DNA of 64,000 nt, taken from Peptococcaceae bacterium BICA1-7 (GTDB lineage Bacteria > Bacillota > Desulfotomaculia > Desulfotomaculales > Desulfocucumaceae). This document shows positions 58,156 through 64,000 of this stretch, one piece after another. The DNA lies in contig JUEB01000009.1 in assembly GCA_000802095.1 (NCBI GenBank), positions 248,001 through 312,000 of the forward strand. Direction: 5' to 3'. The notes under the pieces are model-generated. The model searched no databases and was not told the DNA's origin. It saw nothing but the letters and a program-made list of their open reading frames with translations. The translations under genes were made by a program, and so were the position numbers. Numbering within the stretch: the stretch's first letter is position 1; every line of letters starts with the position of its first letter.

Positions 58156-58905
58156 TTAAAACTCAATAAAGGAAAAATTTTCTTTTATTGGATTAATGTC
58201 AAATTGCATTCTGGTTTTCTTGGGATAAACAATTGAGCACATATATCTGTCTATGGTAAAAGAAATTACCTTGTACTGGGCGAAATTTTTATAATGGCTT
58301 ATTGAATGATTATCGAAAACTTCTATCCCGTCAATCTCAAAAACCTCAAAGGGGGTCATCAGGCCGGTTTTAAGAACCTTGGATAAAGCCTCCTTGGCTG
58401 TCCACAAAAGAGTCAGCCCGGCATAAAATGAGAATGGGCAGGAGCCCATTATTTCTTTTTCAGCCCCGGTTATATGTTTTTCCAAAACATCCGCATTATT
58501 GGGATTTATCTTCTCAATGTCAATCCCCAGGGGATGAGCTTCCGGAAAGGCCAGCGCGGCGCCGAAATCATCGCAGTGGGTAATGCTGACCTGAATGTTT
58601 TGGCAGCCGGATACTACCACAGGCTGAGTAAATATGCCGGGCTGGATTAGAATATCTGTCAGGTTTTCCCGGCCGGTTAGGGCAGCCACCGCCTGCTTGG
58701 CGGTAAAGCGCCCCATCAGATAGCTTCTGATTCTCTTTTCAAATTCCAATGTATTGTAGTATTTAAGTTCCTGATCATGCAAATGCCCAATTAATACTTC
58801 ATAATCTTCAATATCCGAAAGAAAACAGAGGCATAAAGTGGCTTTATATATATTTTCCGGCCTATTCAAGGTGAGTTTGTCCACGTAAACATTGTGTTTT
58901 TGCAT
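58156..58905 (-). CDS. 4'-phosphopantetheinyl transferase, Sfp type
   Basis: 249 residues. It would load the phosphopantetheine arm onto carrier domains of the NRPS encoded in the same run. Motifs: PVVVSGCQNIQVSITHC near 95-110, GIDIEKI near 125-131 (Mg-binding Asp and Glu), and LLWTAKEALSKVLKTG near 163-178 (W-x-x-K-E-A-x-x-K). Start ATG has only a distant GAGGGG site. It is the last gene of the minus-strand run. Confidence 0.88.
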   Translation of the reverse strand: MQKHNVYVDKLTLNRPENIYKATLCLCFLSDIEDYEVLIGHLHDQELKYYNTLEFEKRIRSYLMGRFTAKQAVAALTGRENLTDILIQPGIFTQPVVVSGCQNIQVSITHCDDFGAALAFPEAHPLGIDIEKINPNNADVLEKHITGAEKEIMGSCPFSFYAGLTLLWTAKEALSKVLKTGLMTPFEVFEIDGIEVFDNHSISHYKNFAQYKVISFTIDRYMCSIVYPKKTRMQFDINPIKENFSFIEF

Positions 58906-58971: not shown

Positions 58972-59736
58972 TTATATTTCATAAATACACCTCAGTTCTT
59001 TTGCTGCAATTATGGTTTCGTAGGGGTATCCAAAGGCATTGTTTATATACAAGGTATCGTCTTTTATGACCCGGTTATTGACATGGCTATGTCCATATAC
59101 ATGAATGTTCGATCCCAGTCTGCGAATTTGTTTTTCGATTAAATTTGTACCAAGAACCGGATACAGGCACCTTTTATCACGGGGAATATAATACGGCATT
59201 ACGTCAATCCGCGGGAGAAAATGGGAGAAAGAAATGATAAACTTATTGGCAGTATTTAAAGTAATAAATGGCTCATTAACTGAGATAAAATGTTCGGTAA
59301 TTCTTCTTTCATCATAATTTTCAGGCCACCTGCACGCAATAAAGTCAGCCCAGATTTGAAACAGCTCGGGGGAAGGCCTTTCAAATGAATAGTCATACCA
59401 GCCAAATAGCGGAATGATTGATAATGAAGGGAGATCCAGCGGCTTCATCAGAATACCGCAGTCAGAAGCTATGGCTTGGATTAATTGCAGTTTTTCCATT
59501 GAGTTAGCAACCTGGCAACGTTGCACCCACAGATCATGGTTGCCCGGGATAAAAATAACTTCTAAGAATCTCTTCCTCAAACTTTTCAGTGTTTTTTCGA
59601 ATAAAGGTATTATATCGGTTACATCACCAGCTAAAATAAGGATGTCATTTTGGTAATCATAGAGGGACAAATTATCAAAATAACGAAGGTTTTCCTGGAA
59701 ATCAATATGGATATCCGATATGGCAAGTATTTTCAA
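58972..59736 (-). CDS. Calcineurin-like metallophosphoesterase
   Basis: 254 residues from a TTG with AAGGGGAA at normal distance. All five metal motifs are present: ISDIHID at the start, LAGDVTD near 35, PGNHDLW near 62, SFSHFLP near 170 and YGHSHVNNR near 213. Dimetal phosphoesterase of unknown substrate. It sits inside the peptide-synthesis run; a role there is only an inference from position. Confidence 0.88.
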   Translation of the reverse strand: MKILAISDIHIDFQENLRYFDNLSLYDYQNDILILAGDVTDIIPLFEKTLKSLRKRFLEVIFIPGNHDLWVQRCQVANSMEKLQLIQAIASDCGILMKPLDLPSLSIIPLFGWYDYSFERPSPELFQIWADFIACRWPENYDERRITEHFISVNEPFITLNTANKFIISFSHFLPRIDVMPYYIPRDKRCLYPVLGTNLIEKQIRRLGSNIHVYGHSHVNNRVIKDDTLYINNAFGYPYETIIAAKELRCIYEI

Positions 59737-59782: not shown

Positions 59783-60526
59783 CTATCTTAACTCCGCTGC
59801 GCCGTCTTTCCCTGCCCTGACGTTTTTCCAAAAAGCACAGGCCATGCGGGAGTACACCTCCGGATCGATCAGATTCCGGTTCAGCACCGACTGCGTTTCC
59901 GGGGTAATGTATCCTTGCCGGACAACCTCCTGTCCGGCAAGGAGGGCGGCCTCAAGGTACCACTTTATACTGGCCTGCAGCTCCGGCACTTTCAGCAGAT
60001 CTCCCGCAGGGCACAGAATGGCGGCGGCAAACTCAAAATCGGGGCCGGATGTAAAAAGTCGCATCGTCTCCAGCAGCCCCGAGAAATGATGCCTCTCCGG
60101 ATATGCGCAGCTGGAGATCAGTACGAGCTTTTTGGGCCACTCCTCCTGATAGCGCATCGGGTGGATGTACTGATCGCCGCGCTTGACAATCTGCGGGCTG
60201 ATCAAAGGAATGATCCGGTCCATAAAGTTCTTCATCAGTCCGCTGACGGTGTATATATACAGGGGAGTGGCGTAAAGGAGAATATCCGCCCGGCGCACTT
60301 TTTCCAGAAGCCCGGGCATGTCATCCTTGTAAACGCAGGCTCCAGGCGTTTTAGACCAGCAAGTCAGGCATCCGGTACAGTGATTGATCTTCTTTTCCTT
60401 AAGATATATCACTTCCGTTTCCGCACCTGCCTCCCGCGCGCCCCTGAGAAAAGGCTGCAGTATGCGGTCGGTGTTGCCGAGGTCGCCCCTGGAGCTTCCA
60501 TTGAAAGCCAGCAATTTCACTTTCAT
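59783..60526 (-). CDS. Flavodoxin-fold NAD(P)H:FMN reductase-like protein
   Basis: 247 residues. FNGSSRGDLGNTDRIL near 9-24 binds the FMN phosphate; CTGCLTCW near 50-57 is the cysteine pair motif seen in iron-sulfur flavoproteins; ATPLYIYTVSGLMKNFMDR near 85-103 is the second flavin loop. GGAGGG lies directly before the ATG, so the GTG at codon 3 (60520) may be the true start. Possible tailoring oxidoreductase of the neighbouring peptide pathway (inference). Confidence 0.85.
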   Translation of the reverse strand: MKVKLLAFNGSSRGDLGNTDRILQPFLRGAREAGAETEVIYLKEKKINHCTGCLTCWSKTPGACVYKDDMPGLLEKVRRADILLYATPLYIYTVSGLMKNFMDRIIPLISPQIVKRGDQYIHPMRYQEEWPKKLVLISSCAYPERHHFSGLLETMRLFTSGPDFEFAAAILCPAGDLLKVPELQASIKWYLEAALLAGQEVVRQGYITPETQSVLNRNLIDPEVYSRMACAFWKNVRAGKDGAAELR

Positions 60527-60578: not shown

Positions 60579-61877
60579 TTATTTGCCGCCCATACTTGCT
60601 GAAACCTCTATCTTATGAAATTGCTGGTTGACAGCTTCACTGATAAGATGAGATTTACTTATAAAAATAAGTGATCCCGCAATGCAAAAGAATCCGCATA
60701 TTAAAATAGTATGGGGAACGCCTATTATGCCTGCCAGAGCGGCCGCCATCAGGCTGCCAAAAGGAAACAGGCCTCTAAAGGCCACGGTGAAAAAACTCAT
60801 CACTCTTCCACGCTTATCATCTTCTACAATGGACTGCAATACCGTGCCGCTGGCTGCCATTTGCACAAAGACGCCAAAACCTGCAAACATCAACCAAAAC
60901 ATACAAAGCCCCGGGCTGCGGGATTGGGAAAAGGCAAGCAAAGCCACGCCGTGTATACCCACGGCCAGGGGTATAAGCTTCACCAGACCACGGGCGTCCT
61001 TTCTTGATGCCAGATAAAGTGTGCCGGCCAAAGCTCCCATGCCGGAAAATGCCATTAAAAAGCCAAGTGTCTGCGGGCCTCCATGAAGAATTTCCTTAAC
61101 GAAAACAGGCATAAGCACCGCGGTTGGCCAGGCTGTAAGGCTGACAAAACCCTGCAGTATAATAATGGACTTGATGGGGGAGGAATTAAAGGCATAAACA
61201 TAGCCTTCTTTTAATCCTTTTAATATATTTGTATTTTTGTTTTCAATTTTTTGGGGCTTGACTTTCATGGCCAACAGCGCAGCGATAATGACAAGGTAAC
61301 TAATGCCGTTAATGACAAGGCATATGCCCTCCCCCACAGCGAGAATAAGCAGGCCTGCTATGGAGGGGCCGATTAAGCGCGCCAGATTAAACATGGAATT
61401 GCTTAAAGCAACGGCGTTACCCAAATCCTCCCTCTTTTCAACTATATTAAAAACAAAGGACTGGCGGACTGGCAGGTCGAATGAACCAACCAAACCAAGA
61501 AAAAGGCTTAATGGTATAATGTACCATATGGAAATTTTATCCGTCAAAACCAGAATGGCCATAATAAAGGCCTGAACCATGCTCAGCGCATTGGTGGCAA
61601 TAAAGGTTCTGTGCCGGTTCCACCTGTCGATAAGCACTCCGGCAAAGGGCACAACAAGAAAAAAAGGTATTTGACCGACAAACTCCACAACTCCCAGATA
61701 GAACACAGAGTTGGTCAAGCCATAAACGAGCCAGCTAATGGTGACGCTTTGCATGAAGGTTCCTGTCATGGATACGGCCTGACCGAAAAAGTAAAGACGG
61801 TAGTTTCTATAACCAAAGGATCGGGTGATAGATTTTAGACCGTTCATGATGTTTTTATTGTTATTGTTGTTATTCAT
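60579..61877 (-). CDS. MFS transporter (MFS_3, EntS-like exporter)
   Basis: 432 residues, twelve membrane helices. After an Asn-rich start come FRNYRLYFF-like NYRLYFFGQAVSMTGTFMQ, the loop LIDRWNRHR near 84-92 and SFDLPVRQSFV near 130, all typical of the family that includes siderophore and peptide exporters. ATG with GGAGG 9 nt upstream. It lies 80 nt after the NRPS-like gene, suggesting export of its product. Confidence 0.88.
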   Translation of the reverse strand: MNNNNNNKNIMNGLKSITRSFGYRNYRLYFFGQAVSMTGTFMQSVTISWLVYGLTNSVFYLGVVEFVGQIPFFLVVPFAGVLIDRWNRHRTFIATNALSMVQAFIMAILVLTDKISIWYIIPLSLFLGLVGSFDLPVRQSFVFNIVEKREDLGNAVALSNSMFNLARLIGPSIAGLLILAVGEGICLVINGISYLVIIAALLAMKVKPQKIENKNTNILKGLKEGYVYAFNSSPIKSIIILQGFVSLTAWPTAVLMPVFVKEILHGGPQTLGFLMAFSGMGALAGTLYLASRKDARGLVKLIPLAVGIHGVALLAFSQSRSPGLCMFWLMFAGFGVFVQMAASGTVLQSIVEDDKRGRVMSFFTVAFRGLFPFGSLMAAALAGIIGVPHTILICGFFCIAGSLIFISKSHLISEAVNQQFHKIEVSASMGGK

Positions 61878-61957: not shown

Positions 61958-64000
61958 TTACCATTTAAGATTTATTTCCTTTGCCAAACGCTCAATAACA
62001 CCGGCTGGCGGACTAAACTGCAGATCTGACAGCGCCTGGGCCCTGCTTAACTCGCCCTTGCGAACCAGACCGGCATATTCTTCATGGTACATTGTATATT
62101 TCATTCTTCGCAGGTCCATGTAGGTATTAAGCCAAACCATCCGGCAATTGGTTGTTCTCCCCGGGTACGATGTTGGTATCTGCTGCCAGTCAAATACCTG
62201 CCGGCACTTCTCCTTCAGCGCCTCTTTATCTGTTTTGTTGAATCGGAAAATATAAAAAGGTATTACCAAAATAATACCCTGGTTAGCGTCAGCATCGAGA
62301 TCTTCTCTGGACAGATAAACCTTTTGTTTACTCATAGGCTCCTGGCGCCTCATAAATTCGGCCAGAAATTCTTCGTCACGCTGAAAGTACTCCAGCATTT
62401 CCTCCCAATATTCCAGGGCAGTCTCTTTATCCGCCATCATCATGGCCTGACCCTTGGAATATCCGTTGATAATTAGCGGAATACCCAATTTATCCGCCAG
62501 TTCTATGGCATTGGCATATAGTATGCCTCCGCAAACAAAGCAACTGCTCAATCTCACCTTTGATTCATTGGTATACCGCCAAAGTTTTTTCATGAATAGG
62601 GTATCATGCTGTTTAATGATCAGATCCACGTTTAGCGCCTTGCACAATTTTTTTACATTGTTTGTGGCAATGTCATCCTCATAGCCGTGATCATTATGAA
62701 ACCCAAGCACCTTTAGTTTGTACTTATCCACTATATCTATCAATGCTGCGCTGCTGTCAACCCCACCACTTAAAGGGACCAGAACATGGTACTTATTGTT
62801 TGAGCTTTTATACTTTTCCAGGCTTATAATGAGGTCTGCCTCATCTTTAAATTCATTTTTTTTAACAGGTATATCCGATTGGCTTCTGCAATAACTGCAG
62901 ACTCCCTGTTCGTTTATGTCCGCCTTGGGGAAATTTCCCGGTAAAACGCATTTACTGCACAATACTATGGCATCTTTCTTTTCATCCAGTAGCGTTTCTA
63001 TTGTTTCTCCAATATGTTTTCTGATATTATCAGCCAAAAACTGTATCGTTGCACTCTTGAATATCTTATTGCTATATCTGATTATCAAGTGCATTTGGTT
63101 ATCAAAAATTACAATGTTTAGATGAATTAAGTATGGCAGGTTATTGGCCTTTCCTGATGATAAACCAAAATACTTTTGATCAAATATGGGATTGTCTGAT
63201 TTATTGTCTATATGTCCCAAGTAGTTAAAGCCTATCTCAGGCTCAGGAATACTGTCCAGGCATTTAGTTTTCTTTAAATACTTTGATATGCCATAATTAA
63301 ATCCGCTATTGGGCACTTTAGCAAACTGCTTCTTTATATCGGTGATTTTTTCTATTGGTGAATGGTTATCGTTCAAATCAAATACTACCGGATATGAAGA
63401 GGTGAACCATCCAACTGTGCGGGACAGGTCAATGCCGGCATCAATTTCCTTCCGGCCATGGCTTTCAAAGTCAATCATCACGCTTTTCTTTCCCGTCCAA
63501 TGCTGAAGGGCCTCAACAAAACAGGTGAGAATTATTTCATGATCGCAAAAAGAATGCCGCCGGGGGATTTCCTTAACTATCTTTTCTGTTTCCATCTTAT
63601 TTAACGAAAACACATGCTGCTCAACGGATTCTTCTCTATTATCCGAAAAGTAATCAGGATAATCTCCTGGTATAGGCTGTATATTCTTCATTGCTTCCGA
63701 GCACCAGTAATGTACATCATTGGAGAAGGAATTTATATCGGCATATCTTGTTAAAGAATCCGCCCAATATTTAAAGGAGGTGGTTTTTTCAGGCAGCCCC
63801 AAAGGGAGCCCTTGTTGCAGCTGATCATATATTGTTATGAGATCTTCAATGATAATATTAAAGGAAACAAAGTCGGTGATGAGGTGGTGTATTGTAATCA
63901 ACAGTTCTCCGCTGCCGGCGCCCAGTTTAATATAACCGGCGCGTATAAGCGGACCTTCAGCGAGATCAAAATTAAGCTGGCTTTCCGAAATTATTTGGCG
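61958..64000 (-). CDS. Partial NRPS condensation/epimerization-like domain fused to a PP-loop amidotransferase-like domain
   Basis: The frame is open at the right edge, so the N-terminus lies outside; at least 680 residues are present. The first part is a condensation-superfamily domain: LNFDLAEGPLIRAGY, then ITIHHLITD (HHxxxD active site, about 63875-63895), DAGIDLSRTVGWFTSSYPV and IGFNYLGHI, the last two typical of epimerization or terminal domains. The second part begins CSKCVLP (about 62945) and GVCSYC, then has the PP-loop VPLSGGVDSS (about 62755-62785) and SSCFVCGG. This matches N-acetyl-sugar amidotransferase/WbpG-type ATP-pyrophosphatases that adenylate a substrate for amination. It ends WLNTYMDLRRMKYTMYH. 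The fusion is read through without a stop. Confidence 0.82.
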   Translation of the reverse strand, partial: RQIISESQLNFDLAEGPLIRAGYIKLGAGSGELLITIHHLITDFVSFNIIIEDLITIYDQLQQGLPLGLPEKTTSFKYWADSLTRYADINSFSNDVHYWCSEAMKNIQPIPGDYPDYFSDNREESVEQHVFSLNKMETEKIVKEIPRRHSFCDHEIILTCFVEALQHWTGKKSVMIDFESHGRKEIDAGIDLSRTVGWFTSSYPVVFDLNDNHSPIEKITDIKKQFAKVPNSGFNYGISKYLKKTKCLDSIPEPEIGFNYLGHIDNKSDNPIFDQKYFGLSSGKANNLPYLIHLNIVIFDNQMHLIIRYSNKIFKSATIQFLADNIRKHIGETIETLLDEKKDAIVLCSKCVLPGNFPKADINEQGVCSYCRSQSDIPVKKNEFKDEADLIISLEKYKSSNNKYHVLVPLSGGVDSSAALIDIVDKYKLKVLGFHNDHGYEDDIATNNVKKLCKALNVDLIIKQHDTLFMKKLWRYTNESKVRLSSCFVCGGILYANAIELADKLGIPLIINGYSKGQAMMMADKETALEYWEEMLEYFQRDEEFLAEFMRRQEPMSKQKVYLSREDLDADANQGIILVIPFYIFRFNKTDKEALKEKCRQVFDWQQIPTSYPGRTTNCRMVWLNTYMDLRRMKYTMYHEEYAGLVRKGELSRAQALSDLQFSPPAGVIERLAKEINLKW

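What the first reader, a model, noticed from the sequence alone, without database searches (positions are those of the whole stretch)
61958..64000. NRPS domain fused to a WbpG-like PP-loop amidotransferase domain
The frame runs unbroken from a condensation/epimerization-type domain with intact HHxxxD into a Cys-rich PP-loop domain with SGGVDSS. PP-loop enzymes of this kind install amidine or amide groups on sugars. A fused version at the end of an NRPS would point to an unusual release or amidination of the peptide. The partner genes (PPTase, exporter, flavoprotein, phosphoesterase) support a real pathway.
Basis: partly seen in the sequence, partly recalled or inferred. Interest (0 to 1): 0.7.

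Follow-up and report, generated by a model that had tools for sequence, protein, structure and literature searches.

The report
Asparagine-modifying domain fused to peptide synthetase
A bacterial assembly-line enzyme that loads the amino acid asparagine carries, in the same protein, an ATP-using domain that probably remodels that asparagine while it is still attached; related domains are known from two antibiotic pathways, but this placement at the end of the protein, which recurs in four genomes here, is one I found described nowhere.

Summary
On the minus strand an unbroken 1,850-aa protein reads C-A-PCP-epimerization-PP-loop (AANH) domain; the window shows only its last third. The fusion is no frameshift: a 70%-identical paralogue lies on another contig of the same genome, and three other genomes (two Bacillota, one SAR324) carry it too, one with a thioesterase in place of the E domain.

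The WbpG/amidotransferase reading is not supported. The domain misses the WbuX model cut-off by far, has a CxxC...C triad that two true WbuX proteins in the same genome lack, lies outside the WbuX clade, and has no HisH/HisF partner nearby.

The best clue is the partner A domain: it carries the asparagine code in every fused case, across separate A-domain lineages, and an AsnA gene lies beside the paralogue. In albicidin (AlbIV) and cystobactamid (CysH) a related domain inside an Asn-loading A domain turns carrier-bound Asn into beta-cyanoalanine or isoasparagine. I therefore read this as in-cis tailoring of tethered Asn: nitrile or isoasparagine most likely, CtaC-type thioamidation next, amidination unlikely. 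The chemistry is inferred: CysH, AlbIV and CtaC sequences were not obtainable and the tree is unresolved. Verdict: new variant of a known kind.

The parts
61958..64000 (-). C-terminal part of the NRPS-AANH gene; it continues beyond the window to C9:315531 (L008:9959-15511)
62999..64000 (-). Epimerization domain (C-terminal part inside the window; whole domain = L008:11000-12304)
   Evidence: PDB hits: E domains about 195-258 bits versus C domains under 49 bits; motifs HHLITD, ESHGR, FNYLG
63872..63889 (-). HHxxxD motif of the E domain (HHLITD)
   Evidence: translated coordinates
61961..63001 (-). C-terminal AANH / PP-loop domain (347 aa as delimited here)
62888..62959 (-). N-terminal tetra-cysteine motif of the AANH domain (C15, C18, C35, C38 of the domain)
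62750..62770 (-). PP-loop SGGVDSS
62531..62542 (-). CFVC, first two cysteines of the Fe-S type triad (C154, C157 of the domain)
   Evidence: aligns with CSYC of TtuA; absent in the WbuX proteins of this genome
62144..62155 (-). TTNC, third cysteine of the triad (C286 of the domain)
60579..61877 (-). MFS exporter (MFS_3) directly downstream
   Evidence: Pfam
59783..60526 (-). NADPH-dependent FMN reductase / flavodoxin-like protein
   Evidence: Pfam
58972..59736 (-). Calcineurin-like phosphoesterase
   Evidence: Pfam
58156..58905 (-). 4'-phosphopantetheinyl transferase, needed to activate the carrier proteins
   Evidence: Pfam

Best explanation
The protein is an asparagine-loading NRPS module, C-A(Asn)-PCP-E, that carries its own tailoring enzyme at the C-terminus: a PP-loop (AANH superfamily) domain of the thiotemplated kind. 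Shown here: the unbroken fusion, its conservation, the Asn code of the A domain, the epimerization domain, the intact PP-loop and the CxxC...C triad. Inferred: the A domain loads L-Asn on the PCP, the C domain joins it to the polyketide coming from the upstream trans-AT PKS, E gives D-Asn, and the AANH domain spends ATP to adenylate the side-chain amide oxygen of the PCP-bound Asn. The most likely outcome is that of the AMDH domain of CysH/AlbIV: loss of AMP to give the nitrile (beta-cyanoalanine), or amino shift to isoasparagine. It is a tailoring step on the assembly line, not a release step and not a sugar-type amidination.
For: The fusion is conserved: a paralogue on C19, plus L064, L065 and L066, with domains 58-71% identical to the window copy. 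The A-domain code, read against 1AMU (reference sequence confirmed), is DLTKIGEVGK in window, C19, L064 and L065, DATKIGEVGK in L066, and DLTKVGEVGK in Roseovarius L058, where the AANH sits inside the A domain. These are three A lineages: L066 and L058 are 33-40% identical to the window-type A domains, no closer than the non-Asn A domain of L071 at 39%. L070 has a C-A(Asn)-PCP-E gene with a separate AANH gene right behind it. AsnA (PF03590, 339 bits) follows the C19 copy; asnB precedes the Streptomyces AANH-C gene. Literature: the AlbIV Asn/Cya A domain (code DLTKIGEVGK) holds a 342-aa AANH-type insertion (PMC12283262); the CysH AMDH domain converts CysH-bound Asn to beta-cyanoalanine, and its deletion abolishes isoasparagine and cyanoalanine products (PMC7966384). 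Freestanding AANHs beside non-Asn NRPSs exist (L071, L085 with a Cys code), so Asn is not a generic companion.
Against: The AMDH domains of CysH and AlbIV themselves could not be fetched; L058/L060 stand in for them on architecture. The fused domains are only about 22-27% identical to these, score higher against freestanding AANHs L084/L085 than against L058, and the tree leaves their neighbour unresolved. The domain is C-terminal, not inside the A domain as in AlbIV/CysH. The A codes are predictions from sequence. The conserved triad resembles the Fe-S site of CtaC/TtuA, which thiolate. The structure model was too poor to use (mean pLDDT 53).
Confidence: 0.5

Rival explanations
1. CtaC-type thioamide synthetase in cis: the Fe-S AANH domain replaces oxygen by sulfur on the PCP-bound peptide, either in the Asn side chain (thio-asparagine) or in the backbone amide.
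For: CxxC...C triad invariant in the fused domains and aligned with TtuA. CtaC is an AANH protein of this kind (D77, S78, C154, C157, C284), acts only on PCP-bound substrate, and its homologues lie near NRPSs mostly in anaerobes (PMC6772006). Spacing in the fused domains, 72-73 and 129 residues, is near CtaC's 77 and 127. Weak profile matches of L064/L066 to sulfur transferases LarE and TtuA.
Against: The same triad occurs in L058/L060, which look like AMDH, and in two legionaminic-type cluster proteins (L067, L068), so it does not prove sulfur chemistry. Strict coupling to Asn modules is not expected of a backbone thioamidase. No sulfur-mobilising gene was recognised among the neighbours.
Confidence: 0.28
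2. Amidination as proposed by the first reader: ammonia replaces the amide oxygen, giving an amidine on the peptide.
For: The closest curated family over the full length is TIGR03573, N-acetyl sugar amidotransferase, and the closest PDB chain by profile is LpNASAT 8wex.
Against: Scores are far below the family cut-off. The domain has the Cys triad and a GYSKGQ motif in place of the GEN..E motif of WbuX. No HisH/HisF ammonia pair was seen near C9 or C19, whereas the true WbuX pair on C18 has both. Tree exclusion from the WbuX clade at 100/100.
Confidence: 0.07
3. The AANH domain is a relic or structural appendage without catalysis.
For: The C19 copy's E domain has lost one His of HHxxxD (HYLVAD), so decay of neighbouring domains may occur.
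Against: PP-loop, tetra-Cys, triad and many other positions are invariant across five fused copies 58-71% identical to the window copy, including SAR324.
Confidence: 0.05

Closest known systems
AMDH (aminomutase/amide dehydratase) domain of CysH (cystobactamid) and AlbIV (albicidin)
   Same: ATP-binding AANH-type domain of about 340 aa in cis with an Asn-activating NRPS module (AlbIV with the same A-domain code); CysH's acts on carrier-bound Asn (PMC7966384, PMC12283262)
   Different: There it is inserted in a stand-alone module (inside the A domain); here it is at the C-terminus after E (or TE), in a PKS-NRPS line of an apparent anaerobe; sequence divergence is large by proxy (about 22-27% to L058/L060)
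CtaC, thioamide synthetase of closthioamide biosynthesis
   Same: AANH protein with PP-loop and CxxC...C Fe-S motif of similar spacing, acting on PCP-bound substrate, homologues found near NRPSs in anaerobes (PMC6772006)
   Different: Freestanding protein, works on a beta-alanine chain in a pathway without a canonical NRPS; no Asn link reported
WbpG/WbuX N-acetyl sugar amidotransferases (TIGR03573; LpNASAT 8wex)
   Same: Fold family, tetra-Cys motif, PP-loop, full-length profile match
   Different: No Cys triad in most, GEN..E instead of G.SKGQ, HisH/HisF partners, sugar substrate; fused domains fall below the cut-off and outside the clade
C-A(Asn)-PCP-E modules without a tailoring domain (known from D-Asn prodrug pathways; own knowledge)
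   Same: Domain order and D-Asn output
   Different: No AANH domain attached

Membership tests
WbuX / N-acetyl sugar amidotransferase (TIGR03573) | score above curated cut-off (203.2 bits) | tested here: not met
   123-159 bits for fused domains; 341 and 408 bits for the genome's own WbuX proteins
WbuX / N-acetyl sugar amidotransferase (TIGR03573) | HisH/HisF ammonia-supply genes and sugar cluster next door | tested here: not met
   none recognised near C9 or C19 copies; present beside the C18 pair
WbuX / N-acetyl sugar amidotransferase (TIGR03573) | groups with WbuX in a tree | tested here: not met
   six WbuX/legionaminic-cluster proteins form a 100/100 clade without the fused domains
AMDH domain (CysH/AlbIV) | in cis with an Asn-activating A domain | tested here: met
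   Stachelhaus-type codes DLTKIGEVGK / DATKIGEVGK
AMDH domain (CysH/AlbIV) | ATP-binding AANH fold with PP-loop | tested here: met
   SGGVDSS invariant
AMDH domain (CysH/AlbIV) | insertion inside the A domain | tested here: not met
   A domain uninterrupted; AANH lies after E or TE
AMDH domain (CysH/AlbIV) | sequence clade with CysH/AlbIV (69% identical to each other) | tested here: inconclusive
   CysH/AlbIV sequences not obtainable; proxies L058/L060 form their own group, placement of fused clade unresolved
AMDH domain (CysH/AlbIV) | converts tethered Asn to beta-cyanoalanine or isoasparagine | not testable with these tools
   needs biochemistry
CtaC-type NRP thioamide synthetase | PP-loop Asp/Ser and CxxC...C triad | tested here: met
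   present with spacing 72-73/129 against 77/127 in CtaC (PMC6772006)
CtaC-type NRP thioamide synthetase | sequence clade with CtaC | not tested
CtaC-type NRP thioamide synthetase | sulfide-dependent +16 Da on PCP-bound substrate | not testable with these tools
   needs biochemistry

The most novel reading that the evidence does not exclude
A thioamide synthetase built into an NRPS module: the C-terminal Fe-S AANH domain converts the tethered asparagine side chain to thio-asparagine in cis, a residue and an in-line domain that I know of from no pathway.
Probability: 0.2. Interest if true: 0.75.

Novelty: new variant of a known kind. Interest (0 to 1): 0.5.

Why it matters
It ties a poorly understood class of PP-loop domains to one substrate, asparagine, across fused, inserted and split arrangements, and gives C-terminal domains for testing how one AANH scaffold chooses between nitrile, isoasparagine and thioamide. 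It also marks Asn-tailored polyketide-peptides in organisms that look anaerobic, and a C-terminal position may be easier to graft than an insertion within an A domain.

Tried and rejected
1) Frameshift or assembly artefact: rejected, five fused copies, two in this genome 70% identical to each other. 2) Sugar amidotransferase: rejected as above. 3) 'Cys triad means thioamide': dropped as proof, because L058/L060 and two legionaminic-cluster proteins also carry a triad. 4) viral contigs and phage records: no relatives. 5) CtaC/CysH/AlbIV sequences: class searches of other groups of the phylum reached only freestanding AANHs; other phyla could not be set as centre. 6) AlphaFold model of the domain: mean pLDDT 53, not used for a fold search. 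7) Nitrile synthetases 9leh/9lei and PesC: different enzyme classes, only chemical analogues. 8) Whether C9 and C19 belong to one cluster: not resolvable, contigs end inside PKS genes.

Full report
Observation. The reported frame exists on the minus strand at 61958-64000 and is open at the window's right edge. The window is C9:248001-312000 of a 4.75 Mb genome in 33 contigs. Beyond the edge the frame runs on to C9:315531 without a stop, giving a 1,850-aa protein. Its domains are C-A-PCP-E-AANH. The second C-like domain is an epimerization domain: PDB E domains score about 195-258 bits and C domains under 49 bits. The terminal 347 aa hold a tetra-cysteine motif, SGGVDSS and a CFVC...C triad.

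Fusion or artefact. The same genome holds a second complete copy on contig C19 (1,849 codons open, AANH domain 69-70% identical). A scan of 84,980 species genomes with conserved peptides found three more: HGW-Firmicutes-7 (L064), a SAR324 bacterium (L065) and a Clostridia MAG (L066), AANH identity 58-71% to the window copy. All are fused in one frame. L066 has a thioesterase where the others have E. All five follow PKS genes. In a survey of the class (113 genomes) and of about 400 genomes of the phylum no other fused copy was seen.

Not a sugar amidotransferase. TIGR03573 matches over nearly its full length but at 123-159 bits against a cut-off of 203; two true WbuX proteins of this genome reach 341 and 408. 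These two sit in a legionaminic/pseudaminic-type cluster with HisF- and HisH-like genes (identified by sequence inspection). They lack the triad and have GEN..E where the fused domains have GYSKGQ. A maximum-likelihood tree places the fused domains in one clade (100/99), outside the WbuX clade (100/100); their relation to other NRPS-linked AANHs is unresolved.

The asparagine link. The A-domain codes, read against the gramicidin synthetase structure 1AMU, are DLTKIGEVGK (window, C19, L064, L065) and DATKIGEVGK (L066) (position 331 is printed as C by the aligner in some rows because of a misplaced gap, the motif GPTETVVG is identical in all five). PMC12283262 lists DLTKIGEVGK for Asn and for the beta-cyanoalanine module of albicidin. 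In Roseovarius and Pseudohalocynthiibacter plasmids a related AANH domain is inserted inside an A domain with code DLTKVGEVGK, the arrangement described for AlbIV. In genome G414 a C-A(Asn)-PCP-E gene is followed by a separate AANH gene (L070). In a Streptomyces plasmid an AANH-C protein follows asnB and an A-PCP gene (its code DARHASL.. is only suggestive of Asp/Asn). The A domains fall in three lineages: L066 and L058 are no closer to the window's than a non-Asn A domain is. AsnA lies beside the C19 copy. Freestanding AANHs also occur by NRPSs with other codes (L071; L085 with a Cys code), so the Asn link belongs to the fused, inserted and L070 cases, not to all NRPS-linked AANHs.

Mechanism. 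CysH's AMDH domain was shown to dehydrate CysH-bound Asn to beta-cyanoalanine, and its deletion removed isoasparagine and cyanoalanine products (PMC7966384). PMC12283262 assigns the AlbIV insertion to the AANH superfamily. All AANH enzymes adenylate their substrate and then displace AMP (PMC6772006). I infer that the fused domain adenylates the side-chain amide of PCP-bound Asn and ends in nitrile or isoasparagine. CtaC-type sulfur insertion remains a serious rival because of the conserved triad and the apparent anaerobic setting. Amidination lacks an ammonia source next door. Which reaction occurs cannot be settled from sequence here.

Surroundings. Downstream of the window copy lie an MFS exporter, an FMN reductase, a phosphoesterase and a PPTase. 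The PKS modules lack AT domains; stand-alone ATs lie on C24 and C29, so the PKS is of the trans-AT type. PKS pieces on C3, C6, C19, C24, C29, C30 and C9 show that the assembly breaks inside the clusters.

Limits. Codes are predictions. The predicted structure was unusable.

Noticed in passing
L084:8873-9985 (G527:C240): A freestanding AANH gene with the Cys triad sits between DapD/DapE/DapF-like, decarboxylase and MFS genes without any NRPS: possibly a small pathway from a diaminopimelate-like precursor. It is the best non-fused profile match to the fused domains.
   Followed up: partly
L058:12421-20469 (Roseovarius pelagicus plasmid) and L059: NRPS with an AANH domain inserted in an Asn-coded A domain, on plasmids of two marine Rhodobacterales; an albicidin/cystobactamid-type AMDH arrangement.
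   Followed up: partly
L060:14932-17112 (Streptomyces sp. NBC_01216 plasmid): AANH domain fused in front of a condensation domain, beside asnB, an A-PCP gene and a tyrosine aminomutase.
   Followed up: partly
L085:9568-10689 (G541): Freestanding AANH beside PPTase, KAS III-like, AMP-ligase and Cys-coded NRPS genes.
   Followed up: partly
L010:4092-9638 (contig C19): The paralogue's epimerization domain has HYLVAD instead of HHxxxD and may be inactive.
   Followed up: no
L067:9038-10159, L068:8844-9977: Amidotransferase-like proteins in legionaminic-type sugar clusters that nevertheless carry CWHC and a third Cys, unlike most WbuX.
   Followed up: no
L066:5876-11020: The thioesterase domain before the AANH has GWCTG, a cysteine at the usual serine position of the nucleophile motif.
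   Followed up: no
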